NCBI GenBank assembly: GCA_036562265.1
Contig: DATCKS010000297.1
Span: forward strand, 1-5,734
Length of the DNA: 5,734 nt
Source of the DNA: DASVDK01 sp036562265 [NCBI: Thermodesulfobacteriota bacterium]
Lineage (GTDB): Bacteria > DASVDK01
Direction: 5' to 3'
In this document: positions 391 to 5,734 of the stretch, in pieces
Numbering within the stretch: the first letter of the stretch is position 1
Layout of the letters: every line of letters starts with the position of its first letter
The notes under the pieces: model-generated
Database searches by the model: none
The model's input: only the letters and a program-made list of their open reading frames with translations
What the model was told of the DNA's origin: nothing
Translations under genes and position numbers: made by a program

Positions 391-1323
391 TCACGTCCCC
401 CCGAGCACCAGGCCGGCCGCGCCGAGGATGCCGGCGTCGTCGCCGAGCGCGGCCCGGGCGAGAATCGTGGTCTCGCCCATCGGCCGGTGGGCGCGGGCGA
501 GCAGCTCCGCGCGGAGCGGCGGCTCGATGAGGTCCCATGCCTCGCTCATGCCGCCGCCGATGAGGATGGCCCGCGGGTTGAGGATGTTCACCAGCGTCGC
601 CGCGAGGATCCCGAGGGCGCGCCCCGCGCGGCGGTACACCCCGCGGGCCACCTCGGCCTCCGGCCCCTCCCCCGTCTGCGCGAGCCGGGCCACGGCCGCG
701 GCGTCGAGGTTGCCGTCGAGACCCGCCTCTCGCGCCATGCGGGCCACCGCGGTGGCCGACGCGTAGCGCTCGGCGCACCCCCGGTTGCCGCACCCGCAGG
801 GGACGGCGGTGTCCGAGCTGTCGATGGTGACGTGTCCCGCCTCGCCGGCCATCCCCTGCGCGCCGCGCCAGAGACGGCGGTCGAGGATGATGCCGCTGCC
901 GATGCCGGTGCCGAGCGTGAGGAGGACGAAGCTGTCGTACGGCCGGCCGGCGCCGAAGCGCGCCTCGCCCACCGCGGCCGCGTTGGCGTCGTTCTCGAGG
1001 GACACCGGCAGGCCGGTCCGCCTGGTCAGCTCGACCGCCACCGGGACGTCCAGCCAGCCGGGGAAGTTGGCCGACGCCACGACGGCTCCGCCGGCGTGGT
1101 CGATGACGCCCGGTACGCCGACGCCGACCCCCACGAGCCGGCCCCCTTCCGGGACCTCGCGGGTGACTTCGAGGATCGCCTCGGCCAGTCGGCCGAGCAC
1201 GTGCTCGCGGCCTCGGGAGACCTCGGTGGGGTGCCTACGCCGCGTGCCGACGATGCCGGCGTCGCCGACGAGGGCGAGCCTCGTGTTCGTGCCGCCGAGG
1301 TCGACGCCGACCGCGTAGCGCAC
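391..1323 (-). CDS. ROK-family sugar kinase (glucokinase-like)
   Basis: This 310-residue protein is a cytoplasmic ROK-family kinase that probably phosphorylates a hexose such as glucose, or an N-acetylated hexosamine, with ATP. Visible motifs are the phosphate-1 loop DLGGTNTR (residues 8-15), the catalytic-base region ENDANAAAVGE (110-120, Asp112 the likely base), the phosphate-2 loop LTLGTGIGSG (135-144), the sugar-binding EAGH (161-164) and the zinc motif CGCGNRGC (176-183, with His164, Cys176, Cys178 and Cys183 as expected ligands). The length is normal for a free-standing kinase. There is no N-terminal helix-turn-helix, which argues against a NagC/XylR-type repressor. The start is GTG at 1323-1321, 4 nt after the epimerase TAA, and the next codons (RYAVGVDLGGT) begin the ROK fold directly. 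All key residues are intact. Substrate specificity within the family cannot be read from the motifs. Its place behind nucleotide-sugar genes suggests sugar supply or salvage. Confidence 0.93.
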   Translation of the reverse strand: MRYAVGVDLGGTNTRLALVGDAGIVGTRRRHPTEVSRGREHVLGRLAEAILEVTREVPEGGRLVGVGVGVPGVIDHAGGAVVASANFPGWLDVPVAVELTRRTGLPVSLENDANAAAVGEARFGAGRPYDSFVLLTLGTGIGSGIILDRRLWRGAQGMAGEAGHVTIDSSDTAVPCGCGNRGCAERYASATAVARMAREAGLDGNLDAAAVARLAQTGEGPEAEVARGVYRRAGRALGILAATLVNILNPRAILIGGGMSEAWDLIEPPLRAELLARAHRPMGETTILARAALGDDAGILGAAGLVLGGT

Positions 1324-1327
1324 CGCG

Positions 1328-2263
1328 TTACCGCCCGTGCGCGGCCCGGAAGAAGGCCACGGTCTCGGCCAGCCCCTCGGCGAGCGTGGTGCGCGGCCGC
1401 CAGCCGAGCACCCGGGCGGCGCGCGACGGGTCGATCACGCTGCGCCGCTGCTCGCCCGCCTTGGCCGGCCCGTGTACCGGCGCCGCCGACGACGCCGTCG
1501 CCTCGGCGATCAGCCGGTAGAGCGTGTTCACGTCGGTCTCGATGCCGGTGCCGATGTTGATCGGCCCCGACACCGGCCGTGCGAGGTCGGAGGCCGCCGC
1601 GTTGGCCTCGACCACGTCGCCGACGTACACGTAGTCCCGCGTCTGGGTGCCGTCGCCGTTGATCGTGCAGGGTTCGCCGGCGATGAGCCGGCTCGTGAAG
1701 ATGGCGACCACGCCCGCCTCGCCGTGCGGGTCCTGCCTCGGCCCGTAGACGTTGCCGTACCGCAACGCCACGTAGGGCAGCCCGTGGACCGCCTGGTAGT
1801 AGAAGCAGTAGTGCTCGCCGGTCACCTTCCCGACGCCGTACGGGGAGATCGGGTTCAGCGGGTGATCCTCGTCGGCCGGGAAGCGGATCTGCTCGCCGTA
1901 CGCCGCCCCGCCCGACGACACGAACACGACGCGCTTCACCCCGTGGCGCGCCGCGAGCTCGAGCAGGCGGATCGTGCCGAGAATGTTGACTCGCGCGTCG
2001 TGGATCGGGTCGGCCACCGACTTGCGGACGTCGATCTGGGCGGCGTGGTGATTGAGGATGTCGAACCGGCGCTCGACGAACAGCCGCTCGATCGCCGGGT
2101 CGAGGATGTCGAGGTGGTGGAACTCGGCGCGCGGATTCACCTGCTCCCGCTTGCCGGTGGAGAGGTCGTCGACGACCGTGACCTCGTGCCCGTCGGCGAC
2201 GTAGCGGTCGACCACGTGCGAGCCGATGAAGCCCGCGCCCCCGGTAACCAGGATTCTCGCCAC
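1328..2263 (-). CDS. NAD-dependent sugar-nucleotide epimerase, GalE-like extended SDR
   Basis: This 311-residue cytoplasmic enzyme is an extended short-chain dehydrogenase/reductase that most likely inverts C4 of a UDP-sugar through a transient 4-keto intermediate. Visible features are the Rossmann loop GGAGFIGSH (residues 8-16), the acidic residue after strand 2 (Asp32, favouring NAD), HHAAQIDVRKSV (72-83), SSGGAAYGE (116-124), the catalytic pair Tyr142 and Lys146 in SPYGVGK, LRYGNVYGPRQ (167-177) and GDGTQTRDYVYVGD (203-216), which positions the nucleotide-sugar. At 311 residues it matches the short bacterial/archaeal GalE-like group. By my hand alignment Gly118 sits where E. coli GalE has its catalytic Ser. 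The start is GTG at 2263-2261, whose first G is the last base of the preceding TAG stop. The open frame continues upstream only as a shadow of ugd and the aminotransferase gene. The substrate could be UDP-glucose/galactose, UDP-GlcNAc, UDP-glucuronate or UDP-xylose. The ugd and decarboxylase neighbours make the last two worth considering. Confidence 0.9.
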   Translation of the reverse strand: MARILVTGGAGFIGSHVVDRYVADGHEVTVVDDLSTGKREQVNPRAEFHHLDILDPAIERLFVERRFDILNHHAAQIDVRKSVADPIHDARVNILGTIRLLELAARHGVKRVVFVSSGGAAYGEQIRFPADEDHPLNPISPYGVGKVTGEHYCFYYQAVHGLPYVALRYGNVYGPRQDPHGEAGVVAIFTSRLIAGEPCTINGDGTQTRDYVYVGDVVEANAAASDLARPVSGPINIGTGIETDVNTLYRLIAEATASSAAPVHGPAKAGEQRRSVIDPSRAARVLGWRPRTTLAEGLAETVAFFRAAHGR

Positions 2264-3591
2264 TAGCGTCCCATCCCCATGTAGGTGAAGCCGAGACGCC
2301 GCATCCGCGCCGGCTCGTAGATGTTGCGCAGGTCCACCACCACCGGGCGCGCGAGCGTCTGCTTGAGCCGGTCCCAGTCGAGGTTGCGGAAGAGGTTCCA
2401 CTCCGTGGCCAGCACCAGGACGTCCGCCCCCTTGGCCGCCTCGTAGGCGTCCTCGCAGTAGATGACGTCGGGGTAGAGCCGCTTCGCGCCCGGCATCCCG
2501 GCCGGGTCGAAGGCCTGCACCCGCACGCCGCGCTCGAGGAGCCGCTCGACCAGGAAGAGCGGCGGCGACTCGCGCAGGTCGTCGGTATTGGGCTTGAACG
2601 TGAGGCCGAGGAGCGCCACCGTCGACCCGCGAACGTCCCTGCCGGGGTTCCCTCCGTCGTCGTTCGCGCCGAGCGCCGTGAGGATCTTCTCGAGCGCGTG
2701 CCGCTTCTGCCGCTCGTTGACCGCCATGGTGGCCTCGACGAGCTTGAACTCCATCCCCTGCTCCCGGGCGATGTGCCCGAGCGCCTTCAGGTCCTTCGGG
2801 AAGCAGGAACCGCCGAAGCCCGGCCCCGGGTGGAGGAACTTGCTCCCGATCCGCTGGTCGAGCCCCATCCCCTTCGCCACCACGTGGACGTCCGCGCCCA
2901 CCTTCTCGCAGAGGAGCGCCATCTCGTTGATGAAGGAGATCTTCGTGGCGAGGAAGGCGTTGCTCGCGTACTTGATCATCTCGGCCGTCTCGACGTCGGC
3001 CACGACGAAGGGGGTCTCGATGAGGTAGAGGGGCGAGTAGAGGTCCTTGAGGATGGCGGCCGCCTGACCGCTCGACGTGCCGATGACCACGCGGTTCGGC
3101 CGCATGAAGTCCTCGATGGCCGAGCCCTCGCGCAGGAACTCCGGGTTCGACGCGACGTCGAACGGCACCGGCTCGGGCTGCGACTCCTCGATGATCTTCC
3201 GGATGACCTTGCCGGTGCCGACCGGGACGGTGGACTTGGTGACGATGACCTTGTAGCTGTCCATCGTCTGGCCGATGGCCCGGGCGACCTCGCACACGTA
3301 CTGGAGGTCGGCCGCGCCGTCCTCGCCCTGGGGCGTCCCGACGGCGATGAAGATGACCAGCGCGCGGGAAACCGCCGACTTGAGGTCGTCGGTGAAGGAC
3401 AGGTTCCCCGACCGCATGTTCTTGTCGACCAGCTCGGTCAGGCCCGGCTCGTAGATCGGGATGCGCCCCTGCTTGAGCCCCTCGATCTTCTCCCGGTCCT
3501 TGTCGACGCAGACGACCTTGAGGCCGAACTCCGCGAAGCAGGCGCCGGTGACGAGGCCGACGTAGCCGACCCCCACGACGCAGATGTTCAT
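2263..3591 (-). CDS. ugd: UDP-glucose 6-dehydrogenase
   Basis: This 442-residue cytoplasmic enzyme oxidises UDP-glucose to UDP-glucuronate with two NAD+, providing the precursor for glucuronate- and xylose-containing glycans. The N-terminal Rossmann domain starts with VVGVGYVGL (residues 5-13) and has Asp30 for the NAD ribose. STVPVGT (120-126) and NPEFLREG (149-156, with Glu151) follow. The central domain carries EMIKYASNAF (204-213, with Lys207 and Asn211) and the catalytic cysteine Cys263 in GFGGSCFPKD (258-267). The C-terminal UDP-binding domain contains LGLTFKPNTDDLRESP (328-343). Length and all catalytic residues are normal for a bacterial Ugd. Related GDP-mannose and UDP-ManNAc dehydrogenases share the fold, but the motif set reads best as UDP-glucose dehydrogenase. 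The ATG is at 3591-3589, with AGGGAGA 7 nt upstream. It lies 12 nt behind the aminotransferase stop and overlaps the epimerase start by one base, so it is an internal operon gene. Confidence 0.96.
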   Translation of the reverse strand: MNICVVGVGYVGLVTGACFAEFGLKVVCVDKDREKIEGLKQGRIPIYEPGLTELVDKNMRSGNLSFTDDLKSAVSRALVIFIAVGTPQGEDGAADLQYVCEVARAIGQTMDSYKVIVTKSTVPVGTGKVIRKIIEESQPEPVPFDVASNPEFLREGSAIEDFMRPNRVVIGTSSGQAAAILKDLYSPLYLIETPFVVADVETAEMIKYASNAFLATKISFINEMALLCEKVGADVHVVAKGMGLDQRIGSKFLHPGPGFGGSCFPKDLKALGHIAREQGMEFKLVEATMAVNERQKRHALEKILTALGANDDGGNPGRDVRGSTVALLGLTFKPNTDDLRESPPLFLVERLLERGVRVQAFDPAGMPGAKRLYPDVIYCEDAYEAAKGADVLVLATEWNLFRNLDWDRLKQTLARPVVVDLRNIYEPARMRRLGFTYMGMGR

Positions 3592-3598
3592 ACCCGTG

Positions 3599-3605
3599 TC
3601 TCCCT
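3599..3605 (-). promoter_or_regulatory. Ribosome binding site of ugd, overlapping upstream stop codon
   Basis: On the minus strand AGGGAGA ends 7 nt before the ugd ATG. Its first two bases are the last two of the aminotransferase TAG stop (3606-3604). The overlap means a ribosome ending the aminotransferase gene sits on the ugd ribosome binding site, which suggests translational coupling. It also supports the ATG at 3591 as the start. Confidence 0.7.
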
Positions 3606-5019
3606 AACGTGCTCCATGAGCCCCGCTTCCGTTCGTCCCCCCCGCGACCTCGGCGAGGCACGCCCCGAGGATGCCGACCGCCTCGTCGACCTGCTCGCGC
3701 GTCACCACGAGCGGGGGCGAGAAGCGGATCGAGGAGGTCCCGCACCCGAGGAGCAGGAGCCCTCGCCGGAAGGCCAGCTCGATCACCAGGTCCCGCTCCC
3801 GCGTGGCCGGCTCGCGCGAGGTGCGATTGCGCACGAGCTCCATCCCGATCATGAGCCCCACCCCCCGCACGTCCCCGACGAGACGGTTCGTCGAGGTGAA
3901 GGCCTTGAGCCGACCGAGGAGGTAGGCGCCCACGCGGGCCGCGTTCTCGATGAGCCCCTCCTCGAGCAGGTCGAGCGTGGCGAGCGCGGCCGCGCAGGCG
4001 ACCGGGTTGCCGCCGAAGGTCGAGGCGTGCGCGCCCGGCTCCCAGGTCATGAGGTCCGAGCGCGCGATCATGGCGCCGAGCGGCATCCCCGAGGCGATCC
4101 CCTTGGCGAGGACCAGGATGTCCGGCGCCACGCCGGCCTGCGAGCACGCGAAGAGCGTGCCGGTGCGTCCCATGCCGCACTGCACCTCGTCGGCGACGAG
4201 CAGGATGCCGTACCGATCGCAGAGCGCGCGAAGCCTCGGGAGGAACTCGGCCGGCGGCACCAGATACCCGCCCTCGCCCTGGATCGGCTCCACCACGACG
4301 GCGGCCACCTCCTCGGGGGGTACCAGCCTGTGGAAGTAGAGCCGCTCGATGGCGTCGACGCAGTCGACCCGGCACCCGGGGTAGGTGAGGCCGTAGGCGC
4401 AACGGTAGCACGACGCGTACGGAACATGGTGGACCTGGGGCAGAAGCGGCCCGAAGCCGCGCGTGTGGACCGCCTTGCTCGCCGAGAGCGACAGGGCGCC
4501 GAAGGTGCGACCGTGGAAGGCGCCGTGGAAGGCCAGGAAGCGGGGACGCCCCGTGGCGTAGCGCGCGAGCTTGATGGCGGCCTCGATCGCCTCGGCCCCG
4601 GAGTTGGTGAAGAACACCCGCTTGGGATGGTCGCCAGGAGCCGCGGCGGCCAGGCGGCGCGCGAGTTCCACCTGCGGTCCGTAGGAGAAGTCGGTGCCCG
4701 ACATGTGGATCAACGTTGCCGCCTGCCGCGCGATCGCCTCGACCACACGGGGATGGCAGTGGCCGGTGGCCGCCGCCGCGATGCCGGCCGTGAAGTCGAG
4801 GTACCGGCGGCCGTCGAGGTCGTAGACGTGCGCCCCCTCCCCTCGCGCCACGGCGAGCGGATAGCCGCGGGTGTACGAGGGGGAGAGGTAGCGGGCGTCC
4901 TCGGCGATCAGGGCCGCCGAGAGGGGCCCGGCTCCCGCCGCCCGCGCCGCCGCCTCCGCGGCGGCAGCCCGGCGGTCGGCGTCGGACGGGGCGGCCTCGA
5001 TGTCACGCTTGTCGAGCAT
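3604..5019 (-). CDS. Class III PLP aminotransferase, acetylornithine/4-aminobutyrate type
   Basis: This 471-residue cytoplasmic fold-type I enzyme uses pyridoxal phosphate to move an amino group, probably between an omega-amino acid or similar amine and 2-oxoglutarate. Visible features are YDLDGRRYLDFTAGIA (66-81), the cofactor phosphate loop TNSGAEA (138-144), the ring-stacking region HGAFHGRT (165-172), VVVEPIQGEGGY (241-252), Asp277 in ADEVQCGMGRTG that pairs with the ring nitrogen, the Schiff-base lysine Lys306 in LAKGIASGMPLGA, and Thr334 in ASTFGGNP. All catalytic residues are present. Four cysteines (204, 207, 216, 220) form a CxxC-x8-Cx3C pattern in a short insertion. The first 30 residues are Ala-rich, Asp/Arg-charged and poorly conserved-looking. 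The ATG at 5019 is supported by GAGGA 8 nt upstream. Class III enzymes are normally amino-acid or polyamine transaminases, while sugar aminotransferases belong to the DegT/DnrJ family, so a direct role on UDP-sugars is unlikely. Homologues are labelled as acetylornithine or 4-aminobutyrate aminotransferases, and the exact substrate is unknown. It is the first gene behind the sigma-54 promoter. Confidence 0.93.
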   Translation of the reverse strand: MLDKRDIEAAPSDADRRAAAAEAAARAAGAGPLSAALIAEDARYLSPSYTRGYPLAVARGEGAHVYDLDGRRYLDFTAGIAAAATGHCHPRVVEAIARQAATLIHMSGTDFSYGPQVELARRLAAAAPGDHPKRVFFTNSGAEAIEAAIKLARYATGRPRFLAFHGAFHGRTFGALSLSASKAVHTRGFGPLLPQVHHVPYASCYRCAYGLTYPGCRVDCVDAIERLYFHRLVPPEEVAAVVVEPIQGEGGYLVPPAEFLPRLRALCDRYGILLVADEVQCGMGRTGTLFACSQAGVAPDILVLAKGIASGMPLGAMIARSDLMTWEPGAHASTFGGNPVACAAALATLDLLEEGLIENAARVGAYLLGRLKAFTSTNRLVGDVRGVGLMIGMELVRNRTSREPATRERDLVIELAFRRGLLLLGCGTSSIRFSPPLVVTREQVDEAVGILGACLAEVAGGTNGSGAHGAR

Positions 5020-5027
5020 CCAGGGGG

Positions 5028-5032
5028 TCCTC
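5028..5032 (-). promoter_or_regulatory. Ribosome binding site of the aminotransferase gene
   Basis: Minus-strand GAGGA lies 8 nt before the ATG at 5019. It fixes that start and sits inside the 24-nt leader predicted from the sigma-54 promoter. Confidence 0.75.
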
Positions 5033-5053
5033 GGTCAGGGAACCGCAGAAGCA

Positions 5054-5069
5054 TGCAATTCCATTGCCA
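5054..5069 (-). promoter_or_regulatory. Sigma-54 (RpoN) -24/-12 promoter
   Basis: Minus-strand TGGCAATGGAATTGCA matches the RpoN consensus TGGCAC-N5-TTGCA. Both the TGGCA and TTGCA blocks are exact, and the invariant GG and GC are 10 bp apart as required. The GC at -13/-12 (5056-5055) predicts transcription starting near 5043, giving a 24-nt leader to the aminotransferase ATG with the Shine-Dalgarno inside it. Sigma-54 promoters need an ATP-dependent enhancer-binding activator, usually bound about 80-150 bp upstream. That region here contains dyads, but the activator gene is not in the window. Control by nitrogen status, a surface-polysaccharide programme or a two-component system are all possible. 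Position, orientation and consensus agree well; there is no experimental support. Confidence 0.72.
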
Positions 5070-5113
5070 TTCGGAGCGATCGGGCCCCATGACCCGAAGG
5101 AAACCCTCAGGTA

Positions 5114-5124
5114 GCCACCGTGGC
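5114..5124. repeat. Short dyad GCCAC-C-GTGGC upstream of promoter
   Basis: This is a perfect 5-bp inverted repeat around one central base, centred about 76 bp upstream of the predicted start. It could be half of an activator site for the sigma-54 promoter. A dyad this short also arises by chance in GC-rich DNA. Confidence 0.3.
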
Positions 5125-5169
5125 GTCGGTCGGGAAGCCGCCCGATCGCCGGTCTCGAGGGGGCACGGC

Positions 5170-5180
5170 GCAAAGTTTGC
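5170..5180. repeat. Short dyad GCAAA-G-TTTGC upstream of promoter
   Basis: This is a perfect 5-bp inverted repeat around one central base, centred about 132 bp upstream of the predicted start. Its A/T-rich core stands out in this composition. The distance suits an enhancer-binding site. It has no following T-run, so a terminator is less likely. Confidence 0.35.
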
Positions 5181-5215
5181 GGCCTTCCGGGGTGCGGTTT
5201 CTCGGCGCGGCCCGA

Positions 5216-5734
5216 TCAGGTGCGACGGCCGGCCATCCCCCGGCTCCGGTAGTACTCGATGGTCGCCCTGAGGCCGTCGTCGATGTCGACTCGAGGCTCC
5301 CAGCCGAGGAGGCGCCTGGCGAGCGTGATGTCCGGGCGGCGCACCTTCGGATCGTCCACGGGGAGCGGCTTGAAGACGATGCGGCTCGTACTGCCGGTGA
5401 GCCGCTTCACGCGCTCGGCGAACTCGAGCACCGTCCGCTCCTCGGGATTGCCCAGGTTGACCGGCCCGACGTAGTCGGAGTGGAGGAGCCGGTAGATCCC
5501 CTCGACCAGGTCGTCCACGTAGCAGAAGCTACGGGTCTGCGACCCGTCGCCGAAGACGGTGATGTCCTCGCCGGCCAGCGCCTGGAGCGTGAAGGCCGGC
5601 ACCACGCGGCCGTCGTGCGGGCGCATGCGGGGGCCGAACGTGTTGAAGATGCGCACGATCCGGACGTCGACGCCGTGCGCCCGGTGGTAGGCCATCGTCA
5701 TCGCCTCGGCGAAGCGCTTCGCCTCGTCGTAGAC
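5216..5734 (-). CDS. uxs: UDP-glucuronate decarboxylase (UDP-xylose synthase), C-terminal part
   Basis: The visible 172 residues are the C-terminal half of an extended SDR enzyme that decarboxylates UDP-glucuronate to UDP-xylose with bound NAD+. The 5' end lies beyond base 5734, and the frame is open to the edge. The first visible residues are [11 protein letters not shown], which carry the catalytic Tyr and Lys of the YxxxK motif (second and sixth visible residues). The family's characteristic [47 protein letters not shown] and [10 protein letters not shown] motifs follow in order. This set closely matches eukaryotic and bacterial UXS, including human UXS1 as I remember it, and separates it from dTDP-glucose dehydratases and GalE. 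The N-terminal NAD-binding half is missing, so completeness is unknown. The substrate would be the product of the nearby UDP-glucose dehydrogenase. The gene has the same orientation as the downstream operon but is separated from it by a 196-bp region with its own promoter. Confidence 0.93.

What the first reader, a model, noticed from the sequence alone, without database searches (positions are those of the whole stretch)
5054..5069. Near-consensus sigma-54 promoter heading an aminotransferase and nucleotide-sugar operon
TGGCA and TTGCA blocks with exact GG/GC spacing lie in the one intergenic region, in the right orientation, and predict a 24-nt leader containing the Shine-Dalgarno. RpoN control of a transcription unit joining a class III aminotransferase, ugd, a GalE-like epimerase, a ROK kinase and an AI-2E-type membrane protein would link nitrogen status or a developmental/surface signal to glycan precursor supply. 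The sites are seen in the sequence; the regulatory meaning is inferred.
Basis: partly seen in the sequence, partly recalled or inferred. Interest (0 to 1): 0.6.

Follow-up and report, generated by a model that had tools for sequence, protein, structure and literature searches.

The report
Likely sigma-54 promoter before aminotransferase operon
A short DNA sequence that closely matches the recognition site of the alternative bacterial sigma factor 54 sits just upstream of an aminotransferase and sugar-nucleotide gene cluster in an unidentified bacterium; it may be a real promoter of a familiar kind, but the key checks (sigma-54 gene in this genome, conservation in close relatives, mapped transcript) could not be made.

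Summary
TGGCAATGGAATTGCA lies at 5069-5054 on the minus strand, with GG-N10-GC spacing, in the only intergenic gap over 12 nt. It points at a class III aminotransferase and predicts a 24-nt leader with a GAGGA. A matrix from 42 E. coli intergenic sigma-54 sites scores it 12.2 bits, above 7 of those 42; the next best place in the window scores 6.3. Such a site in this gap on this strand is expected at about 0.1% (Markov null) to 0.5% (real-DNA background); somewhere in the window, about 0.05 to 0.29 are expected.

No genome is held for the window, so rpoN could not be checked. Close relatives were not found; 0 of 92 distant aminotransferase homologues carry a comparable sense site upstream. No NtrC- or NifA-type site matches in the gap. 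The gap follows a co-directional UDP-glucuronate-decarboxylase-like gene, so read-through is possible.

Best reading: a real sigma-54 promoter (about 55%), first of all for the aminotransferase. Sigma-54 control of class III aminotransferases and of polysaccharide genes under nitrogen limitation is already known. Ordinary if true.

The parts
5054..5069 (-). sigma-54-type -24/-12 element TGGCA-N6-TTGCA (GG at 5068-5067, GC at 5056-5055)
5043..5043 (-). predicted transcription start (+1), 19 nt from the motif centre
   Evidence: inferred with the rule in the footnote of Table 1 of PMC4591121
5020..5043 (-). predicted 24-nt leader; GAGGA at 5032-5028, 8 nt before ATG; in-frame TGA at 5037-5035
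   Evidence: sequence
3604..5019 (-). class III aminotransferase, 471 aa (Aminotran_3; NF004426 acetyl ornithine aminotransferase family, above its cut-off)
2263..3591 (-). nucleotide-sugar dehydrogenase, 442 aa, probably UDP-glucose 6-dehydrogenase (best NCBIfam model TuaD, below its cut-off)
   Evidence: TIGR03026 above cut-off
1328..2263 (-). GalE-type NAD-dependent epimerase, probable GTG start at 2263 sharing one base with the ugd stop (TAGTG); nearest solved relative 4zrm, UDP-glucose 4-epimerase. My queries began one codon earlier, at 2266; the frame is open back to 4411
391..1323 (-). ROK-family kinase, 310 aa
1..387 (-). AI-2E-type membrane protein, N-terminal 129 aa, cut by the window end (E 1.1e-4, below the Pfam cut-off)
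5216..5734 (-). C-terminal 172 aa of a UDP-glucuronate-decarboxylase-like enzyme, upstream and co-directional, cut by the window end
   Evidence: best solved relatives are UDP-glucuronate decarboxylases (5.5e-57, next kind 2.1e-25); 68% identical over 165 aa to a stretch beside a UDP-glucose dehydrogenase in L084

Best explanation
5069-5054 (minus) is a working sigma-54 promoter. RNA polymerase with sigma-54 would bind it as a closed complex and start at about 5043 when an unknown AAA+ enhancer-binding protein, bound further upstream or acting from solution, remodels it. Its first target is the class III aminotransferase, probably an amino-acid or polyamine nitrogen-scavenging enzyme. The closely packed ugd, epimerase, ROK and AI-2E-type genes downstream would be carried along, in addition to read-through from the UDP-sugar gene before the gap. 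Shown: the element, its spacing, position and orientation, and the gene order. Inferred: sigma-54 in the host, the activator, the start site, the signal, co-transcription.
For: Exact GG-N10-GC and TGGCA/TTGCA blocks. Score within the range of E. coli sites bound in vivo and about 6 bits above anything else in the window. Correct strand, outside the frame, 24 nt from +1 to ATG; 23 of the 42 E. coli intergenic-sense sites lie within 45 nt of the gene (my count from Table 1). Permuted matrices reach this score in the gap in 8 of 2000 trials. In 80 distant loci such hits (12.2 bits or more) were seen in 3 of 334 sense gaps and 0 of 322 antisense gaps, against a mean of 1.15 for permuted matrices: a weak sign that the matrix carries over to other phyla, absent at lower scores (10 sense and 10 antisense hits at 9 bits). 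Precedent: astC and patA of E. coli, class III aminotransferase genes, are in the same table, marked as confirmed sigma-54 promoters (their class is recalled).
Against: rpoN cannot be shown in this genome, and 3 of 10 genomes holding distant homologues show no rpoN match (some of these may be incomplete). 0 of 92 distant aminotransferase homologues have a sense site of 11 bits or more upstream, while 2 of 92 have one of 12.2 or more on the antisense strand. No NtrC- or NifA-type site in the gap. Real-DNA background makes such a site somewhere in a 5.7-kb window unremarkable (about 0.29 expected), and the motif was chosen after seeing it. The score is below the median of the E. coli sites (14.8).
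Confidence: 0.55

Rival explanations
1. Chance match: an A+T-richer patch in a G+C-rich gap that happens to spell the element; the genes are transcribed from another promoter or by read-through from the upstream UDP-sugar gene.
For: Real genomic DNA of 80 distant loci carries hits of this score at 2-4e-5 per position, 42 of the 46 inside called genes. Permuted matrices hit the window at this score in 217 of 2000 trials. The upstream gene is co-directional and no intrinsic terminator was found in 4900-5400 (only 0.1 expected by chance, so a weak point). Literature: many sigma-54 sites are expected to arise by chance (PMC6397444, abstract and passages).
Against: Only about 0.1-0.5% expected in this gap on this strand; usual distance to the ATG.
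Confidence: 0.35
2. The small dyad inside the site (GCAAT-GGA-ATTGC) is an operator for a local repressor or activator rather than a promoter element.
For: Perfect 5-bp arms with a 3-nt spacer at 5067-5055 (sequence); a 5-bp stem is predicted on one strand.
Against: GCAA...TTGC follows from the sigma-54 motif itself when A comes after TGGCA, so only one pair is extra; folding of 5044-5072 is average (z 0.03); none of the six proteins scanned is a DNA-binding regulator by its Pfam matches.
Confidence: 0.05
3. The gap acts mainly at the RNA level: a structured leader or processing element (5076-5149, 10-bp perfect arms) in a transcript reading through from the upstream gene.
For: Inverted repeat 5076-5085/5140-5149, 10 of 10 complementary; 81-nt fold of -41.2 kcal/mol, z -2.18, 4 of 200 shuffles as good.
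Against: The region was picked after the repeat was seen; the longer stretch 5040-5152 gives z -1.35 (21 of 200) and the whole 200-nt gap folds no better than shuffles (z 0.57, 133 of 200); no Rfam family at gathering score, and in the gap only one chance-level match (E 9.3).
Confidence: 0.05

Closest known systems
Sigma-54 (-24/-12) promoters of class III aminotransferase genes, E. coli astC and patA
   Same: Sigma-54-type element close upstream of a class III aminotransferase gene (sites in PMC4591121 Table 1; the class of the two enzymes is recalled)
   Different: There, binding is shown by ChIP-seq and the promoters are marked as confirmed; here only sequence. The window's enzyme passes the cut-off of NF004426 (acetyl ornithine aminotransferase family) and not that of the putrescine aminotransferase model, and it heads sugar-nucleotide genes.
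NtrC/sigma-54 control of the cepacian exopolysaccharide clusters (bce-I, bce-II) in Burkholderia cenocepacia H111
   Same: Nitrogen-limited, sigma-54- and NtrC-dependent expression of a polysaccharide cluster (PMC5491218, passages); bceC is listed as UDP-glucose dehydrogenase in PMC9684580 (passage)
   Different: Shown there by mutants and RNA-seq; here no rpoN, NtrC or expression evidence, and the window shows sugar-nucleotide enzymes without glycosyltransferase or export genes among the six proteins scanned.
Sigma-54 as controller of the bacterial exterior (Francke et al. 2011)
   Same: Predicted general theme: sigma-54 control of precursors of exopolysaccharide, LPS and wall (PMC3162934, passages)
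   Different: A comparative inference over many genomes; this locus is one unplaced case.

Membership tests
Sigma-54-dependent promoter | GG and GC doublets 10 nt apart within TGGCA/TTGCA-like blocks | tested here: met
Sigma-54-dependent promoter | Matrix score in the range of experimentally bound promoters | tested here: met
   12.20 bits; 7 of 42 E. coli intergenic-sense sites score lower when left out; below their median of 14.8
Sigma-54-dependent promoter | Sense orientation at a suitable distance from a gene start, outside coding sequence | tested here: met
   24 nt from predicted +1 to ATG 5019, in-frame TGA between
Sigma-54-dependent promoter | rpoN in the same genome | not testable with these tools
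   no genome held for the window
Sigma-54-dependent promoter | Cognate enhancer-binding protein and upstream activating site | tested here: inconclusive
   none among the six proteins scanned; no NtrC- or NifA-type site in the gap (consensus recalled); other activators have other sites
Sigma-54-dependent promoter | Conservation of the element before orthologous genes | tested here: inconclusive
   0 of 92 distant homologues, but none is a close relative and none of the 80 named loci has the same operon
Sigma-54-dependent promoter | rpoN-dependent transcript start at +1 | not testable with these tools
   needs RNA data

The most novel reading that the evidence does not exclude
In an unplaced, G+C-rich bacterium, one sigma-54 promoter drives a unit of at least five genes that ties amino-nitrogen scavenging (class III aminotransferase) to UDP-glucuronate/UDP-pentose supply, so that nitrogen or surface signals set glycan precursor flow together with transamination.
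Probability: 0.25. Interest if true: 0.3.

Novelty: new member of a known kind. Interest (0 to 1): 0.15.

Why it matters
If real, it adds one more sigma-54 target of a kind already described (aminotransferases; sugar-nucleotide and exopolysaccharide genes) in a bacterium whose close relatives were not found in the collections searched here. It would help to predict what the cluster responds to, but it would not change how sigma-54 promoters are understood.

Tried and rejected
Own genome: not held, so rpoN and activator genes could not be sought. Whole-genome searches with the aminotransferase over phyla reached from these loci (198, 1, 198, 396, 198, 251, 77 and 237 genomes) listed nothing above 62% identity. 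Limits: share genomes, larger phyla were only sampled, in many genomes only part of the first-look candidates was scored, E-value limits of 1e-150 to 1e-178 were set (one search returned nothing at its limit), and phylum names are only inferred from the named loci. UDP-glucose dehydrogenase in 10 and 18 genomes: best identity 63%. Scans of viral contigs with the aminotransferase (1 relative, 52%), ROK (none), UDP-glucose dehydrogenase (35, at best 55%) and epimerase (2, at best 50%) gave no close relative; plasmids: all 1984 records with a match are below 60%.

Looked for and not found: sigma-70-type promoter (0, with 0.0 expected in shuffles) and intrinsic terminator (0, with 0.1 expected) in 4900-5400, so neither absence says much; known RNA family; RNA structure of the whole gap. 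The 60-aa minus-strand frame 4908-5090 that covers the site was set aside because it overlaps the aminotransferase in another frame. An ECF-type reading of GGAATT was considered by eye and left as weak. The host group could not be named.

Full report
What is there. The window (5734 nt, G+C 0.72) is a co-directional minus-strand gene run: the C-terminal part of a UDP-glucuronate-decarboxylase-like enzyme (5734-5216), a 196-nt gap, a class III aminotransferase (5019-3604), a nucleotide-sugar dehydrogenase that is probably UDP-glucose dehydrogenase (3591-2263), a GalE-type epimerase (2263-1328, GTG start), a ROK kinase (1323-391) and the start of an AI-2E-type membrane protein (387-1). Pfam matches are strong for all but the last, which is truncated and falls below the Pfam cut-off. 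Among the curated NCBIfam models, only NF004426 (aminotransferase) and TIGR03026 (nucleotide sugar dehydrogenase) reach their cut-offs in the listed hits. All gaps except 5020-5215 are 12 nt or less, so 'the one intergenic region' is right for this window.

The site. On the minus strand 5069-5054 reads TGGCAATGGAATTGCA: GG-N10-GC, one mismatch to TGGCACN5TTGCW (consensus recalled, in line with GGcacg-N4-ttGC quoted in PMC5491218). The predicted +1 is 5043 and the leader 24 nt, with GAGGA 8 nt before the ATG. An in-frame TGA six codons upstream of the ATG (5037-5035) fixes the site as non-coding with respect to the aminotransferase.

How surprising it is. I built a matrix from the 42 intergenic-sense sigma-54 ChIP-seq sites of E. 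coli (PMC4591121, section 6 read). The window site scores 12.20 bits; the 42 sites left out one at a time average 14.6 (sd 3.0, median 14.8) and 7 of 42 score lower. The next best place in the window scores 6.3. With a Markov null the site has p about 5e-6 per position; with a matrix adjusted to the window's base content 17 of 42 sites score lower and p is 5e-7 to 2.75e-6. Real DNA is less forgiving: in the 80 named loci, 46 hits at 12.2 bits or more occur in 1,578,928 positions, 42 of them inside called genes. That gives about 0.005 expected in this gap on this strand and about 0.29 in the whole window. Column-permuted matrices agree: 8 of 2000 reach the score in the gap, 217 of 2000 in the window. 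The position of the site, not its existence, carries the weight, and the motif was picked after reading the sequence.

Does the matrix mean anything outside E. coli? In the 80 loci, sense gaps of 60-600 nt hold 3 hits of 12.2 bits or more (3 of 334 gaps), antisense gaps 0 (of 322); permuted matrices give a mean of 1.15 hits in the sense gaps (sd 1.16, maximum 6 in 150 trials). At 9 bits there is no difference (10 and 10 hits) and at 10 bits little (8 and 6). This is a small excess and no proof; gene calls there are crude (longest frames).

Conservation. No close relative could be found; the best aminotransferase identities are 62-65%, spread over many phyla, and none of the 80 named loci has the same operon. 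Among 92 distinct distant aminotransferase loci, 0 have a sense site of 11 bits or more (the highest is 10.1) within up to 400 nt upstream of the aligned part; the antisense strand has 2 of 92 at 12.2 or more. So sigma-54 control is not a general trait of this enzyme family. For the window's own lineage nothing can be said. Of ten genomes holding such homologues, 7 have an rpoN match and 3 do not, so rpoN cannot be assumed; the genomes may be incomplete.

Mechanism. If rpoN is present, my rough estimate runs as follows. About 1-2% of promoter-bearing gaps in a genome such as E. coli carry a true sigma-54 promoter (42 sites; the number of transcription units is recalled), against 0.3-0.5% by chance. 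Allowing for about one in three that rpoN is absent (a guess), this gives 55-70% for a true promoter; lack of conservation in distant homologues and after-the-fact choice push this to the low end. The direct target is the aminotransferase. Its best solved relatives are named 4-aminobutyrate aminotransferases, isoleucine 2-epimerase and alanine/serine racemase, and the NCBIfam model passed is 'acetyl ornithine aminotransferase family'. A role in amino-nitrogen scavenging is the natural reading (inference), as for E. coli astC and patA, which are in the same sigma-54 table (function recalled). Whether ugd and the rest depend on this promoter is open: they are closely packed behind it, but the gap follows a co-directional UDP-sugar gene and no intrinsic terminator was found, with few expected.

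Compared with what is known. The finding would be one more member of a known kind.

Verdict. Observation confirmed; interpretation plausible, unproven and not novel in kind.

Noticed in passing
5076-5085 and 5140-5149: Perfect 10-bp inverted repeat (GCGATCGGGC/GCCCGATCGC) 54 nt apart in the gap, enclosing a predicted 81-nt RNA fold (z -2.18; 4 of 200 shuffles as good). No Rfam family. Could be an RNA element or chance.
   Followed up: partly
5216-5734 and 2263-3591: The upstream truncated enzyme is UDP-glucuronate-decarboxylase-like and 68% identical over 165 aa to a stretch beside a UDP-glucose dehydrogenase in L084, which suggests a UDP-glucuronate to UDP-pentose cluster that begins before the window.
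   Followed up: partly
L011 9266-9282 (+) and L019 947-963 (-): Two Riflebacteria loci carry strong sigma-54-type sites (14.7 and 15.7 bits) in sense gaps, 45 and 57 nt before called gene starts; the downstream genes were not identified.
   Followed up: no
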